Assembly: GCA_921293015.1 (NCBI GenBank) | Contig: OV121091.1 | Location: 11,685,755 to 11,749,754, forward strand | From: Phorcus lineatus | Taxonomy: Eukaryota > Mollusca > Gastropoda > Trochida > Trochidae | Length of the DNA stretch: 64,000 bases | Direction of reading: 5' to 3' | Part shown: piece by piece, positions 9,034-54,483 of the stretch | Numbering within the stretch: position 1 is the first letter of the stretch | How the letters are laid out: each line of letters begins with the position of its first letter | Made by a program: the position numbers and the translations under genes | Notes under the pieces: generated by a model | What the model saw: only the letters and a program-made list of their open reading frames with translations | The model's database searches: none | What the model was told of the DNA's origin: nothing

Positions 9034-12000
9034 TTATATTGCAGATATAGGAAGAGGAGTTCCCTGCAGACCTGCCAGAATGTTGTCAACGGTGATGTTA
9101 CACATAGCCGTTCTTGTCGTCTCTGTTGCGCTGCCGAGATGAGGAATCACTACGCAGTTGTCAAGTTTTATCAGTGGGTGATCAGGCGGAAGTGGTTCAG
9201 GGGAAGTGACGTCAAGACCTGCAGCACCGATATCGCCATTGACCAAAGCTTCCAAAAGATCCTTTTGATTAACCAAGACTCCTCGGGACACATTAACAAA
9301 GATTGCAGTCTTCTTCATCTTCTCAAAAGCTTTCTTATCAAACAATCCCTTGTTGCTTTCATTTATTGAACAGGTCGCAATAACGAAGTCAGATTTAGAA
9401 AGGAGTTCGTCAAATGTTACAAACTCAGCCCCAAATTCCTTCGCTTCCGTCTTTGGATTTCTTCCACAATAGAGGATTTTGGACGGGTTGAAACCTCTTA
9501 GCTTCGAAGCAACAGCCTGACCGATCCTACCAAGACCAACGATGCCAATCACAGATCCGCCAATTTCCTTGCCCGCCATCCAAAGACCATTATCCCAGCG
9601 AGTCCCCCACACTCCATTCTTCACAGACTCCATACCTATGCAAATGTAATATGATTAACACAAACGAATGTATTTGCATTCTAAGACCTATCGTCTGAGC
9701 ATGGGCAATGAGAAAGTTGATATTATTAAACTGATTATCGGTGGACTTGATACTTTGGAAAGAACAGTATCCAACATCATGTTACCTGGTTTAAACTTCC
9801 TGGCTGTGGCTAGTACTATCCCAAGCGCATGTTCAGCAACAGCATTAGTGAGAGCGCCAGGGGTGTACCCTACAGCAATACCACGCTTTCTACATTCTTC
9901 AAGATCCACGTGCTCCAGACCCACTGACATCGTACCGACCACCTTTAATTGATCACCTGAAATATATAGAGGATACTGAACGGTGGAAATTGGATACTAA
10001 ACGAGTTTCCGTGTAATACAATCTTATTAACTACTTTATTATTTCGAATACGACGAGCGAGGGAAATATATAGAGGATAATAAACGGTGTAGATAGTATA
10101 CTAAACGAGTTTCCGTGTAATACAATCTTATTACCTACTTTATGATTTCGAATACGACGAGCGATGGCAAATTTCATAAAGAGGATACTAAACGAGTTTC
10201 CGTGTAATACTATTTTATAAACTACTTTATCATTTCGAATACGACGAGCGATGGCACATTTCATTGCAATTGATTCACGAGCAAAGCAATGTAATAAATT
10301 GAAGGAAGTTTTTTATGTGTTTATTACAGGTACACGAATACATTTACTGACCATTATTGCGAACAGAGAAATAGAGCTAAAACTAAAATTACCCGAGTAC
10401 GGTCACCGTGATGTAAAATGTACAGCAGAATGATAATCTATCATGTGGCAATGAGTAGATGCATCAGTATTGATTAATCACAATTTACAAATATCTATTT
10501 TATTTTTTATATTGTTATGTAAATCACTCCTCAGTTTTAAGATTACCGTAACACGTGGTGAAATGGGGACATTTAAATTAGCATAAATGTTTTTAAGTTG
10601 GATTTGTATGTACACAAAAAAGACAATTTCATATTAGTTTTATATCGAATATAAATATAAATTCAATAATCATTTGAGTACAAATATTGACTGCCATGTA
10701 TATTTATTATAATATTTTATGCAAAAGTAATGAATTTAATATATATTCATTACTTTTGCTGAGAACCACTTTCTCTCCTTAATTTAATGTAGTACATTAA
10801 GTGACGTCAAATTTCTATACTAAATTGTATAAAATTGTGTCACTTGGGTTTAAGATTATCTCATGATCAAATCTTATGAAAGACAAATTAATGCAAAAAG
10901 GTTGTTATTTCCATGATATATTCTAGGTGTCACTCATTTCTCGAATCCATATGTAAACAACAAGTCATCTTTTGCAAACCGAGCTCATAAATATAATGCT
11001 GAGTTCGAAGAAATGTCTATTTATCTTAATTATTTATTGATCATCAACAGTTTCACTGCTTATAAAGTCTAAACTTATGTAATTTAAGTCTGTAAAGACT
11101 TTATCTTGTCTTTCCGTGTCAAATTATCCTGTTCAATAAGTCTCTTCTAATTCAGTATGTACCTCTCTTATCTGGTTTTGACAAGATGAATCTGGTTCAC
11201 AGGTGCACATATTGTTATTATGCATACTTCAAAATCGTGCTGAAGAGTGACACCAGAGGATTACTGTGCCCTACATTTGTTAACACGTCTAGGCCACGTG
11301 GTCGAGGTCAAACTGATATCAAATTCTCATGTAAACCAAGATGCGCTCATCTCCTATATATGTTATATTCAAATATACATCATTAAAAAGTTTACAATAG
11401 ATACCGCAGAAGTTAAATTAAGGCAAACATAGCCAAGTATATGAATAATGCTAGTGACTGCAATTTTGTCAATAATTTATATAGAATTGAATACAATTTT
11501 AAGAAAGTGTATTAAAAATGATTTTACTTTGCGAAATTGAGTCTCATAGAAATCTGTCTGAATCTCAACAGTAACTAAATACAATTTATTGCTTATCAAA
11601 ATACGTAAATATGATTTCACGCATGTTCAAGACCTTAATTGTTACCTGCTAATCCATCGTTACTGTGTAATCCTTAAACAAGGTTAAGGTTTGAGGGGAA
11701 TGCCGTAATTCTCGTAAAGCAACTAAAACTTCTTACCACTTTGCATCATATTTTGTCTGATACTTCAATAATCACAATAACATTGGGTACAACTTTGAAC
11801 AGGATTTATTGTCAATATAACACCATATACATGTACTTATCCAATTAAGCATTTAACATATAGGAATAATTAAAAGTCATCTATAATGTATCATAAATAA
11901 AAAAATATCATAACCATGTACCATCGGTAGAGAGCCTCACTACGTACCTGCTGCATCGAGCAGTTGCCGGTCGACCCGGTCTGGAGGGTGCACGAAGACA

Positions 12001-20016: not shown

Positions 20017-23000
20017 ACAGAAATACATATGAGAGAAATTTACAGAAAGAGTTTATTGTTAAATTGAAATTCCTAATACAAGTTTTTAGAAATGTTGAAT
20101 TTAGGTTTGCATGGAAGAGAAGAAAAATTAAATCTGCATTGCCCATGTTATTCAACAGTCATTTATGTTAACAAGAAAAAAATAGAAATAAGTTTATTTC
20201 AAATATTTGCTTACGTGAAAAGTTGTTTAAGACCCTTGAAATAGTCGGTGCGTTCAAGTGAAGCGGAGAGACTTGGTGGTGAAGGGGGTTTGGCAGGGAA
20301 ATACACTAACACCGTGAAGAATAACAGAATCGATACTCCACACTCTGTAAGCCGAGGAACTAATGTTAATCTTAAAGCGAGACTGCGTCCACAATAGAAA
20401 TGAGACTTTTCGTTATCAACCAGGGCCAATTAGTTGTTAGGCAAGAGTCTGCAAACTTCAGGCTAATTAGCCCGGGTCGATAACGCTGAGTCTCATTTCC
20501 ATTATGGACGCATTCTCGCTTTAACATTAACTTACTTAAATAGCATCAGAACTCAACACTATGTCAGACAGGAAAATCTAACATTACAATGGAAGACATG
20601 TTTTAAGACAATGGAAGACAAGTTTCGCACCATATGCTTAATCCTTTATCAGGTGGACTGGAAAGTAACAACAATGATTATGGAAATCTAATCACGTCTT
20701 CCTTTGCCATGCATTTATTATATACATGTTTATGTGCCCTTGGTATCTCCTTACACGCTACCTGATAAGGAATTATAATATGCTCAAAGGAATCTATCAT
20801 CAAGATAGTCTTGCCTTAAAGAATGAACTTGAACACTAACAAATTTAAACAAAAAAGGTTAAATGACAAATATTTAATTACATGAATAATGTTCATATTG
20901 AAATTTATTTGTTATTTTGCGACTTAGAACAATAGTGTACATTCAATAATTCTAACAAGAGCTTAAAAGAATGTTATATGAGAATTGTATGATATAGGTG
21001 TCTCGTTGAATAAAAAGGCGTTTCAAGCAAATAAGAATGTACAAATTGGAAGAAATGTTTTGGAAACACACAGTGACTTACCGAGATAAAGAAGTTTCAT
21101 GATGCCATCCCTCTCAATAGTTGGGTCAGTAGATGCTGACGAATTTTCTGTTGCCTGAACAACGGGACTAGTTTTACTGAAAACCAATGAGAAACTGTTA
21201 TTTTATTTTTAGTTGGTGGACAATGAAGCGACAGAGTGCATTTTTAAAATGACATTTAATCTAATATTTCTAAATCATCTAAGAATTTCATTGAGAAGAG
21301 ATATTTGTAGATTCGTAACAGTTTGTGTCTCACTTTAGGACGATATTTGTCATGTTTAACTTGTGGTTTTCAGGCTCGGGAACCATCAGTGGACCTGAAA
21401 TAGACAGAACATACACATTATACTTTGGGAATTGCACAGTATAGAGACAAGCCATCATCAGACATGAGTTTGTGTTGATAATAATGAGATTAATAATACA
21501 AGGTTTCAAATTCTGGGGTTTTTAATGACAAAAAACCCAGATTGTTCCGAGATCGTGTCAGATTGAGTGGTTAAGATTGGTTAGGAACTACACTACAATA
21601 TACTACACGACAAAATTAGTCTTCCTTTTAACTTCTCATCGAAAAATATGTTCAACGAATGAACTAAGGTGTGATGTTAATATTTACATCACTATCGAAT
21701 TGACGAGGAACTTTCTTTGAATGAAGATTTTGTCTGTCAATAAAGTTTCTCATCGCAAATCAAACTACATTTATTAATTCAATTCAAATCAATTCCAGCA
21801 TCAAAGGATCATCAATAAATGATTTAATTTATTATTCTAATTTATTTAATCAATTACTCAATCCACGAAAACAAAATGAAGGAATAGGCTTTTACAATCA
21901 CAAGACAACTGTAAAGTCGGTCAACACTCGTTAGTGATATCGAGAGGAATTTGTTGCTCAACGTACCAATGATGAAGGCGAGAGATACGCCGATATAACA
22001 CATCACCATACAAATAGCAGTGGCAGTGGCCCTCTGTTTTGGAGGAAACCAGGTGGATGATAGCAAGGCTGGACCAGCAAAAGGGACTGTCCCTCCGACT
22101 CCGTTTAGCAAGGATCCAATATTAATCAACCTAAGGACATCGAATGGATTCACAATTCTCATTTGGATTGCAATGAGTTTTGGAAAAAAAATTTTCGTTC
22201 TTCAGATGATACACCAGGACTAAACTTTATAAAATTATTTCTTCTCCCAGTTGATAGTTCAAGTAAGCATTTGTTCAAGACATCAACCTTTATCATTCAA
22301 ATGCTTTTTATTAGTTAAAGTCATCATTGCCAAACTCTTTTGATTTCGTTTAAACTATGAGTATGCTTTTCGAGTCAATTTTGTCACACTTTTTCAATGA
22401 TATTATTTTAAAGGTAATTATTGGCTGTTGCTGATAATTAAAATTGATGTTTATCGATTCATCATAGTGTTACAACGGTTAAATTTTGAAAACATGAACA
22501 AGTTAAACTCATATATTTTACATGTAGGAATGAGTATGCAAGTTGATTGAAATTATATGAAACAAATATTAAATAAATAAACAGCAAATATGATTTTTGG
22601 CTTATAAAACAGATAAAAGTTATGAAAAATACGCAACGTGTATGCCACTTTGACAATCAAGCGTGTATAACAATATGGTCATTACAGGAAAGTTCTAACC
22701 AAGAATACGAATATGCCCTCTCTAATCCTCTTTTAATGTCATTCAAGAAATATTTATATTTTCAAGCATTGGTTTAACCTCACTCACCACGTTGCTATAT
22801 ATGGTTCGGTTGTAAAACATCTAACCGTTGACCCCATCATGATAAGTGCCACACATACAAGCAGGGATACCCTCAGACCTATTAAAATTGGATGCTTTTC
22901 GATTGATTTTTTAAAATATCATGTTTATTAAATTCAATTTCATCTCTATAAACATTCTTACGAAGCGCTGCGTGTCATATATATTAAAAACCAATTTAAA

Positions 23001-24297
23001 TGCTTATTTAATATTATCTCAGTCAGAATCTAATCATATAACAACAACAGTGCAATCGTTTACATCTATATAAAATTATTGTTAATAATTCATATTTATA
23101 GCAGTTATTTTTAAAAAGAACAATGTAAATAATGAAAAAACGAACATGGCTCACTATTAATTACAACTGTGCATCCATGACCGATTGATTGGTTACATTC
23201 GAATATGCCTTTATTCAAAACTTTAGGTAAATTAAAATGGTATATAACGAAAAGCACAGTAGCTGATCCCAGAAAGTGATTAATACCAATTTTACATGCA
23301 ACTGTATCCCTTCAACAACTGTTTAATTCATGAATAAATTTTAAAACATGTTTGAAATTGTAATTGTATATTTTATCCTGCGATCTGTTTGACAAATTTA
23401 GATGTCTGGGAATGACAAGTACAAATTACAGAAATGTGTCATTTATTTAAAACCCTCTTCATTCGACAACGCTATTCTTCCAAAAGGTTTGAAGTAATCC
23501 GTCGGGAAAATTTTGATCTTAGAAAAGTACAGTAAAACATGCCATTTTTGTCACCTACATTTTTGGAAAAGCCGTTTTAGCTCTGCATCTCTTCTAAAAG
23601 TGTTCAGCACGAAAACAAAATTTCAAAACTTTCGGAAAAATAGGATTTCTATTTCTGCTAAAAGATGGGCAGATCGGCGGGATATTTAGTTTTGCTGTAT
23701 ACACCTTTGACCATGATTCCAATAACATTCATTCCTAATTCTTCTCATCATCCACATGTTCACTTCAAGATAATTAAATATCCACGACTCACCTTTAACA
23801 TCCATCAGCCACGCCATTGGTATCATGAATATAAAATACATAATATTACCCCAGTTTGCTAGCATGCCAACATTGCCATCAGTCCATCCGAACACCAACT
23901 TGGCTGACTGGGCAATAGGACCGAAAGTATTCCACACCGCAGCTTGAAGTAAAGCAGCGAAGGAGAATACGGCCAAAACATACCATCTTCTCTTGTAAAG
24001 GGTAACTTCTTTCCAGTTTTGCAGTAGAGGAAAATCCTCCTTTGATGAGGATAATGTCATAGTCAAATCACCATTTTCAGCGAAATGCCCGGGTTTATAC
24101 TCTTTCGATGAAGATAATGCCATAGTCAAATCACCATTTTCAGAGAAATGCCCGGGTTTATACTCCTTCGATGAGGATAATTCCATTGCATAATCACCAT
24201 TTTCAGACAATTGCCTAGTATAATCCTCTACTGCCGAGGATAATTCCCCTGTCAAATTACCATTTTCTGAGATTTTTCCGGTGTTAACCTTCATCAT
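15980..24297 (-). CDS. SLC49A4/DIRC2-like lysosomal transporter, copy 1
   Basis: Eleven exons: 24297-23793, 22878-22788, 22130-21967, 21394-21334, 21176-21082, 20344-20215, 19929-19821, 19244-19177, 18725-18607, 17137-16955 and 16122-15980. All junctions keep phase and give 555 aa. The family is a 12-helix major-facilitator group. Human SLC49A4 is a lysosomal membrane transporter; recent work reports proton-coupled pyridoxine export, which I recall and did not verify. Diagnostic matches are VWNTFGPIAQS after helix 1, GTVPFAGPAL plus TWF...QRATATAI, YFPAKPPSPPS, GWIGFYSTIAG and FFELGCE...PIAEGVTAG. The N-terminus has four 21-residue repeats of the form SENGDLTMALSSSKEYKPGHF (residues 10-93). 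The last unit ends in EDFPLL (87-92), an acidic dileucine motif of the kind that sends the human protein to lysosomes. The start is the first of two consecutive ATGs; a splice acceptor just upstream suggests a non-coding first exon. Confidence 0.9.
16370..16560. mobile_element. Partial copy of the 4224-4474 inverted-repeat family
   Basis: Shared blocks with 4337-4513 include CATCCGGGTTGTGCCG, TTGCTGAATGC, GGCTGGTTAGATAGCTA and GGATTCATATACGCT. It lies in intron 10 of the first transporter gene. The left arm is lost or diverged. Confidence 0.7.
17173..17403. mobile_element. Short inverted-repeat element next to transporter exon 10
   Basis: The left end (ATTCTCTCCC...CCTATACAACCTCTGTC) and right end (GACAGACGTTGTACAGGAAC...GGAGAGAATG) are imperfect inverted repeats of about 45 bases around a 140-base interior. 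The element starts about 35 bases intronward of the exon 10 acceptor. A small hairpin at 36561-36640 and a piece at 16168-16205 carry the same CTCCCAACAGAGGTAG-type sequence. Confidence 0.6.
17798..18092 (-). mobile_element. tRNA-derived SINE, near full length
   Basis: It matches 26136-26415 over almost its whole length. On the minus strand the head carries a B-box-like GATTTGAATCCCG, and the plus-strand start has GAGGTGAGGTGATATGGGGTT then TAACGCCGCTTTC. It sits in intron 9 of transporter copy 1. An adjoining open frame on the minus strand is not a gene. Confidence 0.8.
19508..19780. mobile_element. MITE-like element, copy in transporter intron 7
   Basis: Contains the family core AATGATTAAAAGGTGTTCACA followed by AAAATGGCCGCC, then a GGGTTGAGTTATGAG block that also occurs in reverse complement at about 39515. 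The ends are degraded. Confidence 0.5.
19985..20016. repeat. (ATC)n microsatellite, about 11 units
   Basis: A perfect ATC/TCA run just intronward of transporter exon 7 (19821-19929). It is not coding. Confidence 0.95.
20364..20531. mobile_element. Foldback element abutting the exon 6 acceptor of transporter copy 1
   Basis: Two arms of about 69 bases (20364-20432 and 20463-20531) are strong reverse complements around a 30-base loop, with shared blocks AAAGCGAGACTGCGTCCA, AATGAGAC and CTAATTAG. A half copy recurs at about 58768-58800, so it is a dispersed family. It begins only about 19 bases from the start of exon 6 (20344). Confidence 0.85.
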
Positions 24298-28208: not shown

Positions 28209-31200
28209 TCAACTACGATTAAAGTCATATTGTGTTGAAGCGTTGTCATACGCTGTTTGGTTGACCGTAGGTTGGTTTGATGATTGACTAACATCTGGGG
28301 CTGGGATGATAATCTTCGTGGTTGTGTCAATATTCATTCGGGAATAGTTCTCTTTCATCACAAGAAGCAGTGGAATAGCCACACCCACAGAGCCTAGCAG
28401 AGCCCAGTTCATCCACGTCACACCTGACGAACGATGTTAAGAGTTTTAAAAGTGTCGTAACAATTTGGAAAAAAACGAAACGGTACTTTGCAGGATTATC
28501 AATGTGTAAATTTGTTAACATGTAAAATCAATATTTTCGAAGTTTGTTATAATAAAAGCATGATTTTCTTACGTATTCAATTTCAAAATGCTTTTCAAAG
28601 ACGTTTGGTATATAGTCACTGTATCTTATCGGTATTCGAGAATTTGAAGTTATGAAAAAAAATGAATATGAGTTTTTTTCATTTTTTTTTCATAGAATTA
28701 TATTCGAATTGATTTTCAAATGAATAGGCAATAGTCAGAATAGAATAGTTGTAGAACTTGTAACAGACAGTTTAAACAATTGACGTGGTTTAAAAGTAAC
28801 ATTTGATTTTACAACGTACATACAACTCATTACATAACATTTTCGATATCTTCCAAGAATAAAACAGCATCTTGGTGTTATAATGTAGTTCAATAGGGGA
28901 GTCATTCATGTCACAAAGTAGTAGCAATTCCCTCCCCGGTCCACAGATAAGTAATCTATATGGGGAGAGTGTGCGTAAAACACCATACGTCCCAGTTTAC
29001 CTATGTGTGGAATCTGAAGCACGCTGAGGAACAAGATTCCGGTAATGTTGTTGGTAATACCAATAAATGACGTTGTTATTCCTTCAGCTATAGGAAATGC
29101 AGCCTCGCAACCCAGCTCGTAGAACAAAGGGATTGATCCGTTGATGAACACGCCCGTGAGAATAGCAGAAACGTATAGGGATACTGGAAAATAAAAAGAT
29201 TCATAATCCCAGGTAACAAGGATCAAGAAAAAATTCTAATCTTGAACAAAATGATTAAAAAAAGATCAATGAAACAGGTCAAAACAATGGTAGAAACCCT
29301 ATCTAACAAATATGTCGGAATATGCAACGGACAAAAAACGTACCCCATGAGATATATTTTAAGCTCACACAAGGGTATTATCTTTTTTTGCACAGCCTTA
29401 GATAGTAAACTCGTTGATTTAAAAGCTTGAACGTAAAAATTAAAAGGTGACAGCTGACACACTTGATAATTGCAAACAATCTATGACAAAGCAACGTTAT
29501 GTTAATGCCCATGGGTTTTGTTTATCAAAACACCAATACTCGTTCCATATGGGAGGACGGATATAAATGTTTATTTCAACAGCAGTTATGTCATAGCATT
29601 GAATGAATACATGTCTTTGATATTCGAATGGAGAATCATAAAATGATTAAGTTTTACTTTTTCCTATCCAGCTGATACATCTCCCAGTATATACCGTATT
29701 CTAATATCATTTGTAAAAACTTATGTCGAGAGAGAGTCTGATAGGCAAATGACTTCGAAAATTAATCAACAACTAAGCTTAGTGTCAGCTTATAGACTCA
29801 TTGAATAATGTCATTAACTATCAATCCAATGTTTCTGTCTCAATTGCCCTATTAACAATAGAATATTAATAGAATATGAAGTTACAAAAGTAATAATAAT
29901 GACATTAGAATTCAAAGTAACATTTCTATCTGTTACCTTCGCTCTTTACCAGTATAACAGCTTAATAGGAGATGACATTTAGATACCCAAAGCAAAATGA
30001 CAGGAAATCTAGAAGTAACATTCTTATCTGTCACCTTCGTCCTTTTACCATTACGACAACATGTAAGTAGATTAAATTTCAACACTCAAAGCAAAATGAC
30101 ATCAAATTTAAGAGTATTATTCTCATCTGTCATCTTCGTCCTTTTATCAGCTTATTAGGAGATGAAATTTCAACACTCAAAGCGAAGATGAAATTTAAAC
30201 TAATAGAATACTGACATCATATGAAAAGTATCATTATCACCTTCCACCATCGTCCTTTTACCATTATGACAGCGTCATAGGATAAAAAAAATGGAAACAC
30301 AAAAAGAATAATGACATAAAATCTGAAAGTAGAATTTTCATCTGCCACCATCGTCCTTTTACCATTATGAAAGCTTAATAGGATAAAAAATAGAAACACA
30401 AAAAGAATAATGACATAAAATCTGAAAGTAAATACTGACATCAAATCTAAGAGAAACCTTTTCTGTCTTCATCATTCTTTTAAAAGTATGACAGCTTAAT
30501 AGGAGATAAAATTAAAACACTAGAATAATAATAACACCAAATCTGAAAGTAGAATTTTCATCTGCCACGATCGTCCTGTTATCATTATGACAGCGTAATG
30601 ATAAAAACAATAGACACACAAAAAGAATAATGACATGAAATCTGAAGGTAAAATTTTCATCTTTCACCATCATTCTTTTTTATCATTAGGACAGCGTAAT
30701 AGGAGATAAAATGGTAACACAAACAGATTAATGACATAAAATCATAAAGTAGAATTTTCATCTGCCTCCAACGTCCTTTTACCATTATGAAAGCGTAATA
30801 TGATAAAAAAAATGGAAACACAAAAAGAATAATGACATGAAATCTGAAGGTAAAATTTTCATCTTTCACCATCATTCTTTTTTATCATTAGGACAGCGTA
30901 ATAGGAGATAAAATGGTAACACAAACAGATTAATGACATAAAATCATAAAGTAGAATTTTCATCTGCCTCCAACGTCCTTTTACCATTATGAAAGCGTCA
31001 TATGATAAAAAAAAAATTTAACACAAAAAGAATAATGACATAAAATCTGAAAGTAAAATTTTCATCTTTCACCATCGTTTTTTTTTATCATTAAGACATC
31101 TTTAATATGAGATGAAATCGCAAAACTTCAAGAATACTGACATCAAATCTAAGAGAAACCTTTTTCATCTGTCTGCATCATTCTTTTAAAAGTATGACAG

Positions 31201-37200: not shown

Positions 37201-39126
37201 GGTCACTGATAGAAAAACCTAGTTTTACATTACGTTGAGATTTTCAAAACTATTGAAAAGTTTTAACGTCTTTGGGGTTATTTTCTTGGGATTTTTTTCT
37301 GATATTCTGCATTGGCGCTTGTTTTATTTTAAAAATCATCATTTGAAATAAAAAATATTAGATTATATTTTTGTGTTTGTATGATTGCAGCTAGTAAATC
37401 TAACATGGTGATCTTATGTGGTGTGTGAACGAAGAAATTTCACAAACGGTTTTACCATGTTGCTATCTCCGGGTCTGTAGATATGCATTTTATCGAGATC
37501 CCTGCCATTAGAAGCGTACAACAGAACACCATGGCCACACGTAAACCTATTGATTAAAACGCTACAAAGTTTATATGCTATATCAAATGCAAACTATGCT
37601 TGGCAGTTTTTCAATATACATGTAGGATACCAAGACATTTCATACATAACATTATTCAGAAACATAGTCATAGATAACAGAAAACGATACAACAGAACAT
37701 GATTGTTTTCTAATTCATGTATTGACATTTTTGTTTGCTCCTACACTGTTCTATTCAGAATAAAATGACTTCATGTATACATTGTGTATACAATAAAAAA
37801 ACTGCCGGTATATGACAATAATTACTGAGGCTTAAGACTAATAATTTTTGGGACCATTCGTGGACCTTCTTCGGGAACATAGTTATAATTCAAATAGTTA
37901 GATACTTAAAGTTATATTTTATTGTGGAAATGACGTACACATTTTCAAGGTTGAATATTTTTTTTAAAAAACAGTCTGAAAGATGAGGGGTTCAAGATTA
38001 AAATAATATACAATAGTGTAATAGCAAATACATATTTTTAAATATAAATGTCATCAAAGATAATCTAATGTACATGTTTACAAGAATACATTGATATTGT
38101 TAAGTAGATTATACATATGATACACAATATTATTTCAAGGTGTCGGCAATGAATCTTTATTTCTTTATATGTTTAAAAGAGTTGCAATTGATATGTATAT
38201 ACAGAAATGGAATTGCACAATCCAGGAAAGTTCAAGACATAAGGTGTACAGACAATATAAAAGTCTTCTTGTACCAGAGAAATATCTTACATTGTTAACT
38301 AATAAAAAACATAGAAATATTTTCATAAGGATAAGAGCGGGTATTCTCAAATTAAAAGTAAATGAAGGACGATGGCAAGGAATCGATTACAATAAACGTT
38401 TATGTCCTAAGTGCAAAAAAGGAATCGAGGATGAGTTCCATTTTATATTGATTTGTGAATGTTATGTTGAATTGAGAATCCAATATGTACCAAAATTATA
38501 CTATGAAAATCCATCAACCTATAAATTTAATCAATTAGTATCTTCTACTTCTGCAGAAGTATTAAATAATCTATGTAAATATTTATATCTGAGTTTTGAA
38601 TTAAGACAGAATCAAGTTACTTAGAAATTCCCATGTATTGTATCAAGCCCCAAATGTGTTATATTCAAAGAAACGCTTACCATGTATGTTATATACTTAT
38701 TTCATGTATGTTCTATCGTTGTATATGGGCCAATGGCCTTCATACGAATAAAAGACTTGACTTGACTTGACTTGATACACAATAAATATCGGAATGAAAT
38801 TTTCGATAATCTTCACAGAATTTACCTTTAACGTCCAGCACCCAGGCCATAGGTATAAGAACCAGAGACTGGACAATGTTCCCCCAGTTCGCCAGCATCC
38901 CAATATCCGCATCAGTCCAGTTAAAAACTAATTTTGATGATTGAGCTATGGGTCCAAATGTATTCCACACCATGGCCTGCAGAAGACCAGCATAGGAAAA
39001 TATGATCAGTACATACCAGCGTCTCGCATAGGGCTTGATTTCCTTGCTTGAACCGAAGAGGGAGTCCTTTTCATTCACAGATGATTGATTTGAAGCTATA
39101 AGATTGCTCAACTTTTCGTCCTCCAT
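28209..39126 (-). CDS. SLC49A4/DIRC2-like transporter, copy 2
   Basis: Eleven exons: 39126-38826, 37546-37456, 37017-36854, 35619-35556, 35207-35110, 33820-33691, 32798-32690, 32142-32075, 31705-31587, 29183-29001 and 28423-28209. Phase holds throughout and gives 513 aa. Exons 2, 3 and 6-10 have exactly the lengths of copy 1, and exons 4 and 5 are each three bases longer. The same family signatures are present: VWNTFGPIAQS, GSVPFAAPAL, QRATSTAI, YFPAKPPSPPS, AGWIGFYATLAG and FYELGCE...PIAEGIT. The start is taken at the ATG of MEDEKL; an in-frame TTG at 39144 is unlikely to be used, and CAG/GG just upstream looks like the acceptor of a coding first exon. Unlike copy 1 there are no N-terminal repeats and no clear acidic dileucine (the nearest is EKDSLF). 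The C-terminal tail is longer and Asn/Gln/Ser-rich. Substrate and localisation are therefore less certain. Confidence 0.9.
29898..31497. repeat. Minisatellite filling most of intron 9 of transporter copy 2
   Basis: About 15 units of roughly 100 bases. Each contains versions of TTTTCATCTGCCACCATCG, TCCTTTTACCATTATGA, AGCTTAATAGGA and AATAATGACATAAAATCTGA. Some neighbouring units are nearly identical (for example around 30650-30740 and 30840-30930), which suggests recent unit exchange. Open frames on the minus strand here are repeat artefacts. Confidence 0.88.
35859..36200. mobile_element. MITE-like element in intron 3 of transporter copy 2
   Basis: Starts TTTAAAGGGGCGGTAATACG, close to the terminal repeat of the 55685-55932 copy. 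Near 36010-36056 it has the family core in reverse complement (GGCCATTTTAGTATGAACATC). The far end near 36190 has a decayed AACGTGTTAATGCC. Confidence 0.6.
36561..36640. repeat. Small hairpin with CTCTCCCAA / TTGGGAGAG ends
   Basis: TTCTCTCCCAAGAAAGGTAG and CTACCTCTGTTGGGAGAGAA are reverse complements apart from a few bases. The ends resemble those of the element at 17173-17403. It lies in intron 3 of transporter copy 2. Confidence 0.65.
38160..38776 (+). mobile_element. 3' remnant of a non-LTR retrotransposon (LINE)
   Basis: An open frame at about 38169-38624 ends the element's polyprotein. It has the pattern LCPKCKKGIEDEFHF...C, a Cx2C...Hx4C zinc-knuckle-like motif usual at the C-terminus of animal CR1/jockey-type LINE proteins. 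The 3' end is GGGCCAATGGCCTT...AATAAAAG followed by four GACTT repeats (about 38756-38776), a typical LINE tail. The reverse transcriptase and endonuclease are absent. It is 5'-truncated, and it sits antisense in intron 1 of transporter copy 2. Confidence 0.8.
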
Positions 39127-39474
39127 TTTGTCATCAGTTTTCAATTCCCTGTTTGGAAGGTGGAAAATTGTGAAAATTTTTATTTCATGTTCAGCCGTGA
39201 ACGTGAATATATGGATCAGCAGGTCAGTTGGCTCATTCTGACGTGATGTTATCGTCAGTATCTATATATGATAACAAACTGGCCTTGAATTAGGATATCG
39301 ACCGAATCACTATTCTCTTCAGAGATACTAATGGTTATCAGACTAGAAGATATCATCTTGATATATGCATGGCTTGTCACATAACTTGTGTTGACTGAAT
39401 TGAAAGCGGCATTGGCACAATTTGTAGGGAAATATTTCTTCAAATTTTCACCAATTAATATCAATTTATGCGAA

Positions 39475-44738: not shown

Positions 44739-47700
44739 ATGAAGATTATTGGCATAGTCAGTTTGATCATCGTTATTGAAGGTAAGTTCTTACATATTAT
44801 TATCTATGGAAATATATTTTTATATTAAAAGCTAATGATTTTTTTCTTTGCAACCATTTGAAAAATGAAAATTCAAAACCATGAAGAACAACATACTTAA
44901 CATAAAACAGTTTAACGAAAAGTAGTGATCACCATCATATTTATGAAAATTATTATTAAGTCCTATTGTAAATACTGTAATTATTAAGAGTAAGAACACT
45001 TTTCCTATAGCTCTGAGTTCATGATTTGACAAACAAGTGGTTGTTAAAATTAAACGAAGTCATTATGTGTTGATAATGAAAAGTAATTCAGAATTTTTAC
45101 ATTTTCAAACTGATATAGTCAACCTTATATAAATATGTAATACACATGTAATCACAAGTAAGTGTGACCAAACAAATAAATGATAATTATCTAAATTTCC
45201 TTTGCTCAGAAACATGCTTAAAACGTTCGTATCATCTACAAAAAAATAATTGCAAGCAGTCGATTGTCCAGATCATTAATCACATCCAGTCGGGGTTTGA
45301 ATCCGGCAGGGGACTCGTCCAAATAACTCTTGTATCTCAATTATAATCTGTATGACTACGCATGTGACAATGTATCATTAAGTAACTGTGTATAGGACTT
45401 ACTTCGTTAAAGATATGAGTTTCGTATATCGTATACAGAAACCAGATAGAAATGTACAAAATACATATCGACATATTCATTAAAAATGTTACACATTGCA
45501 ATATGCTCTAAGTTACCTTTTTTCTCAAAATTTCATAACATTTCTGTCTATCCTTTTTTTATCTGTAAATGGGACAAACTGGATACCATGTATATCTGTT
45601 TATGTATTTCTTGCATAGCTGGGTTGAGTTTGTCCAACCCTTGAACAAATTCTACACACAGACTTAACGGCAACTGAATGGAAACAGATTGTACAAAACG
45701 TCTTTGATATCATTTCGATGTCAAAATAGTAAAGTCTATCATCATGAAAACGTAAAAAATTCTTTCTTGTGTAAGTACGAGTTAATCCGCTTGGTTGTTT
45801 GTTTACCTTCCTCATTCGTTCTGAGACAGATAAGAGTAGGCTTTGATTATTTAGTGGGTGTTCGTTCCGGGAAGTGTTAAAAGGTTAAATGAAACTGAAG
45901 TAAATGATGAAGCTTTGATTATAAAGTATACCGGATTGGTAGGGGAAGACGTTATACTTGGTTCCTTAACACACACATACAGTGTAAGTTTTGCAGCAAC
46001 TCCTCACTTGGTCTTTTAACATCAATGACAGGTCAAAGTGATGACTACGTCGCGACGTGGAGCTCAGCTCATCTTCGGTGTGCAGGAAGAGGGGGCTTGT
46101 TTGTCAACCATGGGGCGTCATTGGAACATCTTCGAGGGGTCATTTCGACCACGCCCATCTGGCTAGGAGGAAGGCGTGTCCATACATCATGGGCTTGGGC
46201 AGGTGAAAAAGTTCCTTTTTTTATAAATCTGAAAATCTCTAAACTGAAACACCAATTTTTGCTAGATAATGATGATTGTGATAACTTCACCTTTCTGGGA
46301 AGACATTTTAATCTGACTCTGACTGGTTTGAATTTGTTTGAAATTAGATGTATTGTTAGAAATAGAATTAGATGGATGTCAATATGAAACAAAGACCTAA
46401 GGTTAGAATTGTTGAATGAAATACTTATATCGAATATGTATGCACTAATGCATTTGATACATCGACAACTTATCATTTCCTTTATTGGTTGTATTCAGTT
46501 TTATAAATCTGCGAATACAAGTTAGTATGTACAAGACTTATAGATCTAATTTACTCCAAATGTTCTAGATAAGAGGTGAAAGGACTTTTTCAACCAATTC
46601 AATCAAACTAACGATAATAAATGGTTATGAAAATATAGTTCAATTGTTTCAGTATAAAGAATTAGTTTAGTACAATGACACGTGTGCCAATTTACATCTA
46701 TCAAAGGGGTAATACCAAATGTATTGTGTTGGTGCTGTCATTCCTGGCACGTTTTGCTTACTCTGAGGGTGTGGGTATAAATCATGAGATAAAAACGCAG
46801 AAGAATTTGTCCTATAGCAGAAAGTGTAATACCAAGTACCACAAAGTTTAAATGATTTCGTTATTTATTTCTTATTACATACACACGTATGTTATTTATG
46901 ATGTATCATATAACATCGTATATATCATATTTTCAGACGGAAAACTTTTATATGAGGCTCAAGGGTGTTTCAAACGTCCTCCGAATTTGAACCTTCAGTA
47001 TCATGGTATTACGGAAGTATTTGACTGCTTTCTTAGCTGCAAGTCTGTATACAAATATGGCATCATTTCGGTAAGTTATGTTAAGTTTCATACCCTGACT
47101 CAATGCATGATGAAATTGTTAAACTAAGTTAATGTAGTGAAGCGCTTGATACAGATACATTTGTGAAATACAAAACAAAACAAAACATGACGAGTACCTG
47201 AAAACTTGTGCTTCTTTTAAAATATTCCACAACCTCTCCGAAAATTTCCAAACAATAGTTATAACAACTCAACAATTTTAAGCACGAACTGTAGTGTACG
47301 ATAAACTAAATTGCAAAATGTCTAAAAAGCCTGTAGGCATGCAAATTCTGCATGAATACAGCTTTCAATAATAGCCACAAAGATTATTTCGTTTCACTTT
47401 CATCTGGATCATTAAGCTGTAGGTCCTTACCACAAAACGTATTGAATCGATTGCAGGCTCTGTATGAAAAATAAAATTTGCTCTGAGCACAAAATGACAT
47501 CATTTTTAATTTCGATTTTTAAACCACATGTGCCCAGAATTTCAATATTTTTCTATTGAAACGTTTTTTTCTAAAAATTCCAAATCTATGTATGTTAGAT
47601 ATATAGAGAATTTCATCCAATTGTCCTCTGATATCCAAATTTCAACACAAGTTGACAAAAGTTAAACATACCCGAGGCTTGCTGAGAATATTTATACTTT

Positions 47701-50700
47701 TATCAATAAGTGTGGAATCATTTAATATCAGATGCCAAGGTAAGGTTGTATATATCATGCAAAACATGCTTCATGTTGATTCCATGAAAATTAACATCCC
47801 TGAACACTACACTACCAACAGACTCCAAATGCGGACATTTTTCAGCACCGAGGCGTCATTATGTTTATAGCATAGCACTGTGGTGTCATAACTTGATGAT
47901 GTAAATAACTATGACGTCATGTACTTTTCGCTGGTTGTCAAAATCATATGTCCTTGGTGTTAAGCTAGATATCCGTAAGCTCTGTTCCCTGTGGAACACA
48001 GATTTGGATGAATAAGTGACAAAGAGTATGTTTTAAAAAGTGTGTTCGAGGCTTAAATAACAGCCAAAATACCAGATGACATGTTTTCAATTCAAATCGC
48101 CTTTCTAAAGTTGCATCGTTAACGGTAAAATGGTTAAATTATTACGGTTTTTGTTCAAGTGTAATCGAAAAAACATATGCATTTTTAAAAAATGAGCCAA
48201 AATAAAATCGAAATTCTGAGTCTAATGTACTTGTTCATGATAAATTAGCACTATACCTTTATTTGTTGTTGTTTCTGTTGTAAATACATTTATGAAATTA
48301 CGTTTGAGTCATGGTCGCGCGCCATTGTACGGTTTTCGATCACAAATCTCGACTTTGACCTGTTTAATGTCACTATACTGGAAACATTAGCATCAAAATG
48401 CCAATTTTAAGAAACAACCATTACTTGTTAAACAAATAACACTGTTTAAGAAGTTTGACATATTTGACCAAAACAACATACTCCATTATTTTTTTAATAT
48501 ATATTCATATCGTATGAGTATCAACTACTCTTTCTATTCCAGGGGGACAGATGTACATGTATCGACTACATCGGCAACCTCTCACGTGCTGGACAAGACA
48601 GTTGCAACCAGCCTTGTGCGAGAAACTTTGGAGAAACTTGTGGAGGTTCCGGTTTCATCAGCATTTATCAAAGATGTACGTATATAGACTGATTGCTGCT
48701 AACAAGGGTACTACATATCTGATATTGAGAAATTGGCCATATTCAATGGATAATCCTTAGCTGTATAATGTCAAAATGTGTAGGAAAACGTTAAGATCGT
48801 TCAATACAACAGACATTTTGCGTATGGAGCTTCTTGTATGATAACAATATATACCACAATTCCGTATAGTTGCTATGGTTTTCTTTGTTCAAAGTCTAAG
48901 TGTATTAGTCGACACTAGGATTTCTGAAATATCGATTCTTTTTAGCTACACCAAACAAAATTTAGGAAGCAAAACTTTCCGTTTCATAAAACATGTAAGT
49001 CAGACAGTGTAGTTAATCAGTTAATTATTTCAAATATTTGTGGTACTCATGTCAGTTATTGACTTATTAGGGACAAATGAAAACGTTCTTGTGGTCTTTA
49101 AATGTAATGCGGGCACTTTCTTGGGCAACATGTAGAGGTAATTTTCATTCAATGCTTATTGATGTTAACATTGTTTCAGGGATAGACAATATCAGCTGTC
49201 GATGTCTCAAACACCATGTTCATGTAAACAATAGAAACATTTTTGTAAAAGTAATTCGTCGTAGATAACAAAATATATTTAAGTGATTATTTTGTAAATT
49301 ATAAATTTAAGCGAAGATTGGTAAAAGTCCAATCCGTTTAAATTTTAATCGACAGTTCTATTCTATGCAAGGTGTGACCTAATATGACAAAAACACTTGA
49401 TCTAAACTTGTCAAGATTTGTAAAGTCAGATGAATCAACATTTACTCGATGTATCGGCCAAATTCCTCCTGTTGCCAAGAATCGTAATTTCTTCTCGGCG
49501 CAATCCCTGGAGGTCCCACGCTTCTAGATAAGGGGAGGGTTGTTGACATATCGGACAGAGTCGGTACATCTAGTGCATGTTCCCTTACTTTATGTGGCGT
49601 ACACTTAGGACAAAGGAAACCATGACAACTGGTGAATGTTACGCGAACAGGCCTCTGATATGACAGATATCAAAGCGTTTCGTAGCTCCACAAAAACAAG
49701 TAGAAAAGGAACAAATTATTTTTCCAACTTTTCTCCTTACATCTTTCGAGAATCCACTCGTTTTTTACTACTATGTTGATGTTTTAGGAACCATTTAAAT
49801 ATCTGATGTCTCCTCTGTAAGGCACATGCTTTTTGATTGTGGGATATTGACGTTACAAGCATAAAGGTAATGGGCATTAACGTTTCAGCTACTGATGATT
49901 TCCCTTTCTCCTCGGAATTGAACAATACCGATTTCTCCGACTGTGGCTATCTGAGTGAAGATAGGAACCAGATCGTTATCAGGACGGCTTCCTGTGGAAA
50001 GGATATCACTGAATTCAAACGAGCATTTTGCAAAGGTAAGCAAAGCAAGGGTTAACTTTGTTTCAGTGATATTCAATGTAAATGAACTCGTAACCACTGT
50101 TAAAGAACTGGGCCCAGATTTCCTAAGCTCCAGTTTAATCTCTGCACAGGTCTATATCGATACAGTAGTTTTGACGTTCACGTTACCTTATTTCGTCCAA
50201 TCAAAAGGTTCAATTTTGTTTTGATCACTAGGTGATCGCTAAAGATACATAAAGACTTTAATCATAAAACAAACTGTTTATATCTTAAATAAATTTTAGT
50301 GAAGGCAGTTTCAAGGAGGTTGATCAAAACCCCCTCCCCCTTCTCTTCGTAATACTAAGGCCCTTTAGAATTTCTCCTCGGTTAGTGCGTTTTTTTCCGA
50401 ATAAGGACTCTGGCTTTAACATTTACATACTTATATCAAATGATTCTATCCAGATCCGGGACGGACGATAGAACCAGAAAATTACTATAAAACTTGGGAG
50501 ATGTCATGTCACGGAAGTACGAAAGCTCATGTGACAAGGGCAGATAACCTGTACCTTACTCCTCCCAAGTATTTCTGGATTGGTCTCAACAGAACAACGA
50601 CATGGATATGGGATGACGGTAAACCTAGATTTTCTTCCTTTAGCGCAGGCATTTTTATTAAACCTACTTGGTTTAGAGTATATTTTGATAGGGTTAAACA

Positions 50701-53700
50701 TGTCAAAAGTTGTAAATGTTATTTCTTTTATCAAAAAGTACTGACAACTGCTTAAAATTACCTGTTTAATGGTAATAGGTTTCGTATGGTTGCAATAAGT
50801 CCAACCTAATTTGGAAACATTTTACACATACACACAAAAAGACGCTAAATAAAGACGCTAAATAAACTTCATGAAATATAATGTATGTTTACCTTGACAA
50901 ATCATGAAATTCACATTTAAATGATCAATTAACAGTCTAATATCAAGTGTCTTAAAAGTCATTTATAGTAAAAAAAATTTGGGCTTGACTGAAAAACACT
51001 AAGTTTCATCCATTTCATAACAACAACAGCCTAATGACAAGACAAGTATGTTATTATTTCATTTTTTGCGACTTGACTGCAAATCGCTAATTATGATTTC
51101 CGTTATGTTGGCACATCTCTTACTGTTACTTTGTCCCTTTCCTTAAATACAGGCACTAGCGCCGAACCGGAAGTAGGGACCGTCAGATACGGCGAGAAAC
51201 GGGGTGGCTGTCTGGCAGCGTATGAAGACGAGGCGAAGAAGATATACTTGACAGCTCTTCCTTGCAAGACCAAACTCAGAGTCGTGTGTGTTCACGGTAA
51301 GACGATACTGTAATACGTAAAACATGTGTCATTTTTATCCTTTTTTAACCAAAGTACGAATACTGAATATGATTCATATTTAATGAAAGTGTCTGTTGAC
51401 CATTAAGCTTTATCATTGGTGTTGTCTTTGTAGAAGTGCAGACTGTTTGTGAAAAGTATCTTATTAACGCTAATCGGTTCTGTAAAGTAACAACATAAAG
51501 GTCTTAAAAGTCTATATCTACTCGAAAGTCAAACTATTTATACTAATCAATAAGTCAAATAAATTTTGAAGCTTGAAACTTATGAAAGGATGATATAATC
51601 ACGGATTGGATTTGTGACCGTTTGATGTTGTGAAATGTAAACAGAATATGTGTCATTTCGGCTTTTGCACATATATAAGGTTCCTAATCGATTTCGATAA
51701 AAATCATTACGGTAATTTTTTTACATTATCATAAATGTGTCAAATTATGCTATCAATATCTAAAACTTATTTGTGAAATAGGAGTACCTCCACACGTATC
51801 AACTTCAACAACACAGATTGTTACATCTCTGAAAGAAACAATACGGACAGCATCAACTGAACAAACAACTTCAACAACAGTATCCATACGAGAACTGACA
51901 CCAACTATAGCAAAATCTAAAGCAACAACAACCTCACTTCCTTCAACAACAGTGAAAACAACAACGTTTGAGCAAACGACAAAAACAACAACATCGCCAA
52001 CGTTTAAACCAACAACGACTACAGCTCCAACAACAGTCAAAGCAACAGTCTTGAAAACAACTTCTACAACGTCGAAACCAACGACAACTTCTATAACAAC
52101 ATTCATTCCAACTCCAACAACAACAACAACAACTCCTACGACAAGACTTCCAACGTTAATTACAAAACATCCAACAAGAACAACAACAAGACCTCCAACC
52201 ACGACCGAACCTTCAACACCAACTACGGCGCACTCAACATCAACTTTAGAAATAACCAAATCTACTTTACAACCACCAACAACGTTAAAAACAACAACTA
52301 TAACGTTAAATTCTTCAACAACAAGCTACACAACAAATGGAAACCTTAAAAGTCCAACGAAGCAATCCAACCAAGGCCACAACAACAGTCCAACGACCGC
52401 ATCATCTGGGGATAAAACTTCTCAAAGGGTCACCTCAATTTTACATCCAGTGTTAGGGTCTACCGATAAACCATATGGCCAATACGTAGGTGAAAGTACA
52501 GTTTCAACGGAATACCTTCCAACCGTCGGTCAAACAAGTTCTTCAACCAACAAAATGACCGGACAGAGGTTACAGGTTACGCCAACAGAGAGTAATCAAG
52601 GTCTTCAATCAAATGGTAATTAACGTTCTAGTAATTGTGGCAGATTTCGATAGGATTTTCTTGGAATTAAAGGCACATCAACATGTTCTTGGAAAACATT
52701 TGTCCATATTTCCCCATTAAATAACAGTTGATGAAAAACATATTTTCTTCGGAGGTTGAAACATCCAATTACTTAACGCAATTAGCTCCAGTGTAAAATA
52801 AGATGCCATCATGTCATTTTAGTTGGAACACTTTTAAAACAATTGAATTAGGGGCATGGATTCCACACTTTAATTGATATCAACATTGGCAACAGTGGTA
52901 TCAGTAGATATCATTCGCATATATAAGATAATGTCGTGTAATATCTATACGGCATTGCAACTTACATGGATAGAAATATATATTTTCGTTAGAAACTGCA
53001 TTGTCTTATGTTTATTTAAAAATAAATCTTTTATTCGCTGAATAAGAATTGTATTACATTGAAGATCGTTAAGTATCCCTATATATTTCGTATTAACTCA
53101 GGTCTCTCCATCGGACCCGGAGTTAATTGTTTGTGGTTTTCACTCGTTTAATACGAAATTATTTGCTCCTTAATAGAAAATGTATTATACGGAAATTTTT
53201 TTAGTATCATCTTTATATTTCGTTAGAATTACATAGAAGTTCTGCTTAATCTGCCTTTTCACATAAGTTTATTAATGAAAATTGTATTACAGGGAAGATC
53301 GTTTAGTAACCCCTCTATACCTCTTGTTAACTCAGGTCTCTACATCGGACTGGGAGTGGCAGGGGGCGTGGTTCTGCTGATTCTTCTGATCATTATCCTC
53401 GCCGTGATTACCAGGACAAGAGGGTAATATTTTTAATATTCATGAAAAGCATATAATATAATTTCAGTTTGATTGAAACCAAGTTCTATGATTAGACAAC
53501 TTTGTTTTGTGTATTAGTGCGAGTTTTTGGTGCTGATATTTTTATCACATGTTTTCATTTAAAACGAAGTTAATATAAAATCTACTCTATACGTAGCAAT
53601 CATTGCAAAAAAGAAGTTAACCATCGAAAGAACATTGTTTTCCTTCCTTGTCACAAGTTCTTAATTGCCTCTTTATATAATAATATGCTTCAAACCAAAC

Positions 53701-54483
53701 AATAATAATCGAGGATTTTCTTGCGTTATCAGAAGTGATATTCTAAAGACATCAAATCGGAAAATAATAGAACTTATTTGTGTAAAGATAACTAGGCCAA
53801 AATTACTGGAGTTTAAGTTGGGTTTTTTCCATTTACATAAAGAGTAATACATCTGAATTATTATCAACACTATGTATTTATATAATCAAAAGTATCCAAT
53901 TCAAATCAATTATGTCATCTTTTGAGAATCGGACAAAGAAGCCTCTTTACGATAAACTTTAAATGAAAGAGCACCTAAACCTACTTTTAGCCTTTACTTT
54001 TGAATACGATCTCCAGAGTGTGGCCAGAGATCCGTGATGAACAGCATTTGCATCAAAGCAAAGCAAATATCCCTTAACCTTGTTTTCAATATCATTTCCA
54101 GTGGTCAGTCCAAGATCTACCGTGTGCTGTTGAGGTCGAGACGAAGCCTTTCCCAGCACAGCAACAGCAGTACAGCATCGAAGGACAATCTAGTGGACAA
54201 GTCCTTCTGGGGCAAGACAGCCAAGAGGGTTAAGCTCCAGTCTGTTACCACAGATGACCGGATCATAAAGTGGAGAGACGATAACTGGGGGTTCGAAATG
54301 GAGGATGGAGATGATTCGGTTTTCTCAGAACCACCCTCACCTGTCCAAAATGGACAGATTGCTTCAGTTGGAGTGACCACAAGAGCGTCACTGGCTATTC
54401 CAGATCCTCTGAGGTCAGTGCATTTCGAGGATGAACTTGAGAAGCGAAGAAGCCAGATCTCCACCAGTGGGAAGGTGGATTGA
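44739..54483 (+). CDS. Membrane mucin with C-type-lectin-like and WSC domains
   Basis: Ten coding exons: 44739-44781, 46032-46202, 46937-47070, 48543-48675, 49889-50035, 50454-50618, 51153-51296, 51782-52615, 53336-53423 and 54102-54483. Phase holds throughout and gives 746 aa. A signal peptide (MKIIGIVSLIIVI) comes first. Residues 15-71 are the first half of a C-type-lectin-like domain (WSSAHLRC, IWLGG, SWAWADG). Residues 72-160 are a WSC domain (GCFKRP, FDCFLSC, DRCTC, CNQPC, CGGSGFISIY). Residues 161-209 look like the second half of the first lectin domain (DCGYLS...SC...FCKD). Residues 210-312 are a second lectin-like domain (FWIGLN, WIWDDG, three later cysteines). Residues 313-590 are Thr/Pro/Ser-rich and probably heavily O-glycosylated. 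A transmembrane helix lies at about 592-613 and a 127-aa cytoplasmic tail follows. Canonical EPN/QPD and WND calcium-sugar motifs are absent, so classical sugar binding is doubtful. An acceptor at 44724-44725 shows there is a non-coding exon upstream. It is likely a cell-surface recognition or adhesion protein; ligand unknown. Confidence 0.85.
45250..45330. repeat. tRNA-like B-box, possible SINE scrap
   Basis: GGGGTTTGAATCCGGCAGGG at about 45292-45311 resembles the SINE head, but no full element or cloverleaf can be traced. It lies in intron 1 of the lectin gene. Confidence 0.3.
46937..48675 (+). other. WSC-domain cassette (two exons) nested in the first lectin domain
   Basis: Exons 46937-47070 and 48543-48675 together encode one WSC domain of about 80 residues with eight cysteines. 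The cassette enters and leaves in phase 1. Joining exon 46032-46202 directly to 49889-50035 would stay in frame and give an uninterrupted lectin-like domain. WSC domains are known from polycystin-1, Kremen and fungal stress sensors, where they stand as separate modules. Confidence 0.75.
51952..52350 (+). repeat. ACA-rich coding repeat of the mucin exon
   Basis: A run of ACA/ACG/ACT threonine codons with CCA proline codons gives TTT..P-type repeats. It is inside exon 8 of the lectin gene and is expected to vary in length. The valine-rich frame on the opposite strand is its shadow. Confidence 0.85.
53049..53126 (+). pseudogene. Decayed duplicate of the exon 9 acceptor region
   Basis: Aligns with 53281-53360, which contains the true acceptor and first codons of the transmembrane exon. 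Shared blocks are ATTGTATTACA, GAAGATCGTT and TTAACTCAGGTCTCT.CATCGGAC. After about 25 exon bases it diverges into GGAGTTAATTG, a stop-containing frame. It is not usable as an exon. Confidence 0.75.

What the first reader, a model, noticed from the sequence alone, without database searches (positions are those of the whole stretch)
46032..50035. A WSC domain nested inside a C-type-lectin-like domain, on a symmetric two-exon cassette
Exon 46032-46202 ends at the WxWxDG motif of a lectin-like domain. Exon 49889-50035 supplies what looks like its second half (DCGYLS, SC, FCKD), in the same relation as exons 50454-50618 and 51153-51296 in the second lectin domain. Between them lie two exons encoding a complete WSC domain, phase 1 in and phase 1 out. 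Either the protein has a WSC domain inserted at the start of the lectin long loop, or splicing chooses between a WSC-plus and a WSC-minus lectin. Polycystin-1 carries both modules but side by side. I know of no nested case.
Basis: partly seen in the sequence, partly recalled or inferred. Interest (0 to 1): 0.82.

Follow-up and report, generated by a model that had tools for sequence, protein, structure and literature searches.

The report
WSC domain nested in lectin domain
A mollusc-like genome carries a family of probable cell-surface receptor genes in which one recognition module (WSC) appears to sit in the middle of another (a C-type lectin fold), at the loop where such lectins usually hold their ligand; the exon order recurs in about 25 gene copies, so it looks like a stable design and not a one-off.

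Summary
Observation confirmed. Ten exons (44739-54483, +) give a 746-aa type I membrane protein: signal peptide, lectin N-half, WSC on two exons, presumed lectin C-half, second lectin domain, Thr-rich stalk, TM, tail. The window gene alone does not prove nesting: its skip-join has no Pfam hit and exon 49889-50035 is barely recognisable (268 of 2000 shuffles as good; 127 of 2000). The case rests on the family: 25 loci, window included, have N-half, WSC and the next lectin N-half in order; no such pair without a WSC was seen. In the 11 loci read, a three-cysteine exon follows the WSC (in nine the picker demanded that pattern; background control). Re-joined halves hit solved NK-type lectin folds across both halves (best 1.5e-5). 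Pfam Lectin_C matches 9 of 10 re-joins at E<=0.1, much of it from the N-half; the WSC profile hits yeast Wsc1. Best reading: a WSC took the place of the long loop of a lectin-like domain without canonical Ca-site motifs. WSC skipping would be in frame but is untested. No RNA, no fold model.

The parts
44739..44781 (+). Exon 1, presumed signal peptide (MKIIGIVSLIIVIE), phase 0-1
   Evidence: hydrophobic start, no signal-peptide program run
46032..46202 (+). Exon 2, N-half of lectin-like domain 1 (one Cys, WxG, WxW), phase 1-1
46937..47070 (+). Exon 3, WSC first part; its first residues complete WxWxDG, phase 1-0
48543..48675 (+). Exon 4, WSC second part (CTC ... C ... CGG), phase 0-1
49889..50035 (+). 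Exon 5, presumed C-half of lectin-like domain 1 (three Cys), phase 1-1
   Evidence: by position, phase and Cys and by its counterparts; not secured by its own sequence
50454..50618 (+). Exon 6, N-half of lectin-like domain 2, phase 1-1
51153..51296 (+). Exon 7, C-half of lectin-like domain 2, phase 1-1
51782..52615 (+). Exon 8, Thr-rich mucin-like stalk, phase 1-1
53336..53423 (+). Exon 9, transmembrane segment (by eye), phase 1-2
54102..54483 (+). Exon 10, cytoplasmic tail and stop

Best explanation
The gene encodes a type I membrane receptor whose first C-type-lectin-like domain is built from exons 2 and 5 and carries a WSC domain (exons 3-4) in place of its long loop. Shown: exon order, phases and frames; the same order in 25 loci; lectin-like signal across both halves in the family; no WND and no EPN/QPD in the C-halves read. 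Inferred: the ancestral domain had a lectin intron after WxWx (phase 1) and a symmetric phase-1 WSC cassette landed there. The loop leaves and re-enters the lectin core at one place (recalled) and the first and last strands of the WSC sheet are neighbours, so both can fold; the four lectin cysteines pair across the insert; the WSC sits at the tip where lectins bind ligand, so that it, and not a calcium site, does the recognition. Binding is then passed through stalk and TM to the tail. A microbial or matrix glycan ligand is a guess from fungal WSC lectins.
For: Gene model, GT-AG throughout, phases 1-1/1-0/0-1/1-1 over exons 2-5. A gene on another contig, bounded by eye, with the same order and phases. 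25 loci with N-half, WSC, next N-half in order, 0 such pairs without WSC (rows typed and, for the window). Skip-joined profile: 27 solved sequences at E<=0.01, CD94-like 8umo 28.4 bits (1.5e-5) and CLEC5A 2yhf 27.8, both halves aligned; N-halves alone give these two 22.8 and 18.0. Against lectin domain 2: 44.2, 0 of 200 shuffles of the C-part columns reach it (max 35.6); C against C2 17.4, 0 of 200 (max 13.6); with background three-Cys segments in place of shuffles 1 of 120 reaches the real score. The nine relatives' C-halves are more alike than all 62 background segments picked by the same rule. Pfam Lectin_C in 9 of 10 skip-joins, WSC in 5 of 9, both at E<=0.1; WSC profile to yeast Wsc1 7pz2 1e-5. 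WSC exons constrained: dN/dS 0.24-0.53 in 5 of 6 pairs, sixth saturated. Lectin intron downstream of WIGL described for fish genes (passage, PMC514892); WSC strands 1 and 5 adjacent (passage, PMC9024836).
Against: Window exon 5 is not secured by its own sequence and its skip-join has no Pfam hit. The C-half exons of nine relatives were picked by a script that demanded phase 1-1 and three Cys, so those traits are partly by construction; a candidate by the same rule turns up in 82 of 291 background intervals against 9 of 9 real ones. C-halves against 16 conventional C-halves: 13.8, 3 of 200 shuffles reach it; the C-half profile alone finds nothing in the PDB. In c7a the C-half adds 1.4 bits to Lectin_C (29.9; N-half with DG typed on 28.5). 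The N-half profile also matches unrelated HtpG chains at E about 0.01. c7b-c7d dN/dS is 1.7 on the first WSC exon. The Wsc1 paper sees no evident ligand pocket on WSC domains (passage). No transcript, no structure model, no other species; 14 of 25 loci were not read.
Confidence: 0.7

Rival explanations
1. Alternative splicing: the two WSC exons are a cassette; cells make both a WSC-less lectin and a WSC-bearing form, the latter perhaps with a broken first lectin domain.
For: Skipping keeps the frame in the window and in the relatives as modelled; in 6 of 11 skip-joins the join gives WxWxD; the N-half donor is weak in 11 of 11 loci (mean 1.9 of 4 consensus positions against 3.7 for the first WSC exon).
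Against: No N-half/next-N-half pair without a WSC was found; WSC exons are constrained; 5 of 11 skip-joins have no D there (A in the window, c7a, c7f; H in c7d; G in c7g). No isoform evidence either way.
Confidence: 0.17
2. Not nested: the N-half exon is a remnant or free-standing half domain, the exon after the WSC is an unrelated cysteine-rich linker, and only the second lectin domain folds.
For: Window exon 5 fails the sequence tests on its own; C-halves elsewhere were picked with a Cys rule.
Against: C-halves of the family align with lectin domain 2 beyond 200 of 200 column shuffles and 119 of 120 background sets; skip-joins hold exactly four Cys in 10 of 11, five in c7f.
Confidence: 0.1
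3. Assembly or gene-model artefact: exons of two genes interleaved.
For: No transcript; one array (c7d, L062) is visibly rearranged.
Against: Same order in 9 loci with intact exons and splice sites on five contigs (C7, C11, C17, C19, C29).
Confidence: 0.03

Closest known systems
Polycystin-1 / sea-urchin REJ family
   Same: WSC and C-type lectin domains in one membrane protein family (passage, PMC1934368)
   Different: Side-by-side WSC-then-lectin arrangements also seem to occur in this genome (C12, C17, C37, C39; my own HMMs, some matches weak).
Bivalve C-type-lectin-domain proteins with WSC (PMC10140915)
   Same: WSC named among domains combined with lectin domains in bivalves (passages)
   Different: WSC occurs once in the text; nothing about a nested order in the passages seen (figures not held)
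Group V (NK-type) lectin-like receptors: CD94, CLEC5A, KLRG1
   Same: Among the closest solved folds of the joined halves; no Ca-site-2 motifs
   Different: No inserted domain; type II topology (recalled)
Yeast Wsc1 and human Kremen1 WSC domains
   Same: Sequence match to Wsc1; 8 Cys in the window. Six relatives have 6, and the two missing ones match the C27-C86 pair of Wsc1 by position (PMC9024836 passage)
   Different: Not inserted in another domain

Membership tests
C-type lectin-like domain (domain 1) | Four core Cys, WIGL-like motif, WxW | tested here: met
   W43, G45, W53, W55 and three C-half Cys in 10 of 10, first Cys in 9 of 10; the C-half Cys were demanded by the picker in most relatives
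C-type lectin-like domain (domain 1) | Significant profile match over both halves | tested here: met
   family; the window member alone not met:
C-type lectin-like domain (domain 1) | Exon 5 of the window is the C-half | tested here: inconclusive
Ca-dependent C-type lectin (sugar-binding) | EPN/QPD with WND | tested here: not met
   no W[NDS]D in 11 of 11 skip-joins; [EQ]P[ND] strings in 3 of 11 (c7b, c7d, c11), all in the N-half
WSC domain (PF01822) | Pfam match over the curated cut-off | tested here: inconclusive
   window 26.4 against 27.8 bits, E 8.4e-6; 5 of 9 members at E<=0.1; profile hit to Wsc1 1e-5
WSC domain (PF01822) | Eight cysteines | tested here: met
   window 8; of eight fully modelled relatives six have 6 and two have 7
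Nested (discontinuous) domain architecture | Host halves flank guest in one transcript | not testable with these tools
   no RNA; genomic order and phases only
Nested (discontinuous) domain architecture | Predicted fold with closed host domain | not testable with these tools

The most novel reading that the evidence does not exclude
A receptor family in which the ligand-binding loop of a lectin fold has been exchanged wholesale for another recognition module, and in which the symmetric phase-1 cassette can be skipped so that one gene makes a WSC-tipped and a plain lectin-like receptor, diversified by local gene duplication.
Probability: 0.15. Interest if true: 0.78.

Novelty: new variant of a known kind. 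Interest (0 to 1): 0.62.

Why it matters
C-type lectin folds are among the widely used recognition modules of animals and vary most in the long loop. A family that put a second whole module into that loop, at an intron, would be a natural case of domain grafting by exon shuffling, a template for loop engineering, and a warning that profile scans report such proteins as separate or missing domains. It also points to a multi-copy receptor set of possible immune interest in a mollusc-like genome.

Tried and rejected
Pfam and PDB on single exons and joins: C-half alone too short. Chimeras E2+E7 (26.1 bits) and E6+E5 (20.8; E6 alone, with G typed on, 14.7): E2 takes an ordinary C-half; E5's gain stops at profile position 89. 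In the relative c7a, N2+C gave no Lectin_C hit and N+C2 42.0 bits. C-half profile against PDB: nothing. C-half against 16 conventional C-halves: weak (one shuffle gave an odd score of 130.7). A possible other C-half at 49595-49651 (8.6 bits) was rejected by eye: one Cys only, inside the intron before exon 5. Lectin HMMs made from this genome's other lectins gave only chance-level matches at exons 2, 6 and 7 of the window and none at exon 5. Myosin used to place the genome: best PDB matches are squid and scallop myosins (species of the entries recalled), so mollusc; genus not determined. Rows dropped: c7d from A1-A3, c7_10 from A2 (its second WSC exon was mis-phased at the time; start corrected; no GT donor), so 10, 9 and 10 of 11 were aligned; A6 used 4 of 6 loci with a domain-2 C-half hit. 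From the locus count I left out three lone or overlapping matches (C7:7669950, C7:14622223, C17:48520270) and the C2/TM rows.

Papers: only search listings and found passages were seen (searches; passages 64-68, 92-95). PMC13114784 has no lectin or WSC, PMC12842671 no WSC. No nested WSC/lectin case was seen in the listings of searches; these cover open-licence papers only and list a part of the hits, and PMC8242945 was not opened.

Full report
What is there. On the + strand, ten exons from 44739 to 54483, all with GT-AG borders, give an open frame of 746 aa: signal peptide, exon 2, two WSC exons, exon 5, a second lectin-like domain (exons 6-7), a Thr-rich stalk, a transmembrane exon and a tail (one search was a first try with wrong borders). 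Exon phases are 0-1, 1-1, 1-0, 0-1, then 1-1 for exons 5 to 8, 1-2, 2-0. No close copy was found: a search with the 299-aa ectodomain gave six of its own exons and six weak matches in the WSC part, and the tail matched only itself.

What each piece is. The WSC pair gives Pfam WSC 26.4 bits (cut-off 27.8); against relatives, with the window left out, 40.6 bits, 0 of 2000 shuffles. Exon 2 resembles the first half of C-type lectin domains (leave-one-out 9.9 bits, 0 of 2000 shuffles, best shuffle 9.1). The second lectin-like domain passes Pfam. Exon 5 has little signal of its own: no Pfam match, leave-one-out 1.5 bits with 268 of 2000 shuffles as good, summed pairwise score reached by 127 of 2000 shuffles, while each of nine relatives beats 300 of 300 shuffles. 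Against exon-like three-Cys segments from background DNA it does somewhat better (3 of 62 as similar to the relatives). Its cysteines are 17 and 12 apart; nine relatives have 18-23 and 8. Placement limits widened to admit it fit 250 of 19600 random placements, and 17 of 623 intronic windows have its G+C or more.

The family. A weak WSC match on contig C7 (L016) lies in a gene with the same exons in the same order and phases, borders set by eye: N-half, WSC a, WSC b, C-half, linker, second lectin domain, TM (three of the borders were one or two bases off and its frame breaks after the linker; one search has the domain-2 exons). Searching the genome with that protein and with two further members and grouping the exon matches by script gives 25 loci, the window included (its row), with N-half, WSC (one or both exons) and the next N-half in order; pairs without a WSC: 0. 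Six further fragments are incomplete. One of the 25 (C7:14617710) is jumbled. A C-half is seen in 15 of 25: ten by search, the window by gene model, four by reading. The search scores only the best candidates, so counts are lower bounds; 14 loci were not read.

Eleven loci were read: the window and c7a, c7b, c7d, c7e, c7f, c7_10, c11, c19, c29, c7g. All have the order. Nine have intact exons with GT and AG over the four exons; c7_10 has no GT donor after WSC b, and c7d is degenerate. In the relatives other than c7a, exon borders were picked by script for the expected phases, and the C-half also for three cysteines, so phases and C-half cysteines there are not independent. HMM matches made before that rule found the C-half in c7b, c7d and c7e (E 0.0014, 0.0017, 0.00014) and only weakly elsewhere. 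The rule finds a candidate in 9 of 9 real intervals, 1 of 9 antisense ones and 82 of 291 background intervals; real splice scores average 1.67 against 0.95, and 0 of 62 background candidates reach the real median.

Is the C-half a lectin half? In A1 (10 joined copies) W43, G45, W53, W55 and the three C-half cysteines are invariant and the first cysteine is in 9 of 10. The A1 profile matches 27 solved sequences at E<=0.01, CD94-like and CLEC5A chains at the top, the two printed alignments running over both halves. N-halves alone give 22.8 bits for 8umo and 18.0 for 2yhf against 28.4 and 27.8. Against lectin domain 2 (A6), A1 scores 44.2; shuffling only the C-part columns gives at most 35.6 in 200 trials; C against C2 alone 17.4, shuffles at most 13.6 in 200. 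With sets of ten background three-Cys segments instead, 1 of 120 reaches the real score of 17.3; without the window the nine score 16.4. Each of nine relatives is more like the others than any of 62 background candidates. Pfam Lectin_C at E<=0.1 is found in 9 of 10 skip-joins, the window's being the miss, but in c7a the N-half supplies 28.5 of 29.9 bits. Weaker still: against 16 conventional C-halves 3 of 200 shuffles did as well, and the C-half profile alone found no solved structure.

Where the insert sits. The junction follows WxWx; in the alignment to the CD94-like chain the gap between the halves falls between that strand and the next cysteine, which I take as the long-loop region. That region carries Ca sites I-III and is highly variable (passages, PMC7618208). 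No skip-join has WND, and the EPN/QPN strings (3 of 11) are in N-halves. The first codon of the WSC exon gives D after WxWx in 9 of 11 loci (H in c7d, A in c7g), and the exon's consensus opening DNSxPF looks like the DGSP that follows WxW in ordinary lectins (recalled). An intron downstream of WIGL is described for fish lectin genes (passage, PMC514892).

How it may work. Shown: order, frames, constraint (dN/dS of WSC exons 0.24-0.53 in five of six overlapping pairs, the sixth saturated; c7b-c7d 1.7 on the first WSC exon, c7d being degenerate). Inferred: the WSC stands where a lectin holds its ligand. The WSC sheet order puts its first and last strands side by side (passage, PMC9024836), so its ends should be close, as an insertion needs. 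A fungal WSC lectin binds beta-glucan, yet the same paper finds no evident ligand pocket on Wsc1 (passages), and Kremen uses its WSC for protein contact (passages, PMC5014086), so the ligand is open. Six of eight fully modelled relatives have six WSC cysteines (two have seven); the two missing ones match by position the pair that bridges strand 1 and loop 5 in Wsc1, a joint loss as expected of one disulfide. Tails of c7a and c7b carry repeated tyrosine motifs; the window's tail is unlike them by eye and unique by search.

Splicing. Leaving out the WSC keeps the frame, and 6 of 11 skip-joins give WxWxD. The N-half donor is weak in 11 of 11 loci (mean 1.9 of 4 consensus positions, against 3.7 for WSC a and 3.1 for the C-half). 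This is compatible with regulated skipping but is not evidence of it. RNA is needed.

Known or not. WSC plus lectin domain is known, in polycystin-1 relatives (PMC1934368) and in bivalves (PMC10140915). A WSC inside a lectin domain was not seen in the listings of searches of open-licence papers. The same genome also seems to have WSC followed by a lectin domain side by side (C12, C17:6.38 Mb, C37, C39), some matches weak; the C17 locus also has a lectin match before its WSC. I call it a new variant of a known kind. The genome is mollusc-like by its myosins.

Noticed in passing
L062 (C7:14600800-14609100): N-half plus WSC-a unit repeated five times (about 866 bp apart); N copies 2 and 3 and WSC-a copy 4 frame-shifted, WSC b with an in-frame stop; also a 214-bp unit x3 at 5490-6135.
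   Followed up: partly
eleven loci incl. window 46203: The splice donor after the lectin N-half is weak in all eleven loci read.
   Followed up: partly
L058 and L057 (C7:14644-14660 kb): Tails of two relatives carry repeated YSHL...YDIA...YNHL-like tyrosine motifs, suggestive of signalling.
   Followed up: no
C12:33.486 Mb, C37:32.42 Mb, C17:6.378 Mb, C39:28.79 Mb: Other loci with WSC next to, not visibly inside, lectin domains; some matches weak.
   Followed up: partly
L066 (C29:33942400-33946300): WSC a, WSC b and C-half matches are each reported in a 358-aa open frame, perhaps one frame with introns read through.
   Followed up: no
window 2998-4180 and 9034-9633, minus: Two tandem copies that look like hydroxypyruvate/glyoxylate reductase (by eye).
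   Followed up: no
window 21854-24297, 28906-29226, 38740-39144, minus: Pieces that look like duplicated membrane transporter genes (by eye), with a 63-bp repeat at 24040-24215.
   Followed up: no
C2:56.25-57.07 Mb: An array of about ten or more muscle-type myosin heavy-chain genes (matches; one exon compared).
   Followed up: no
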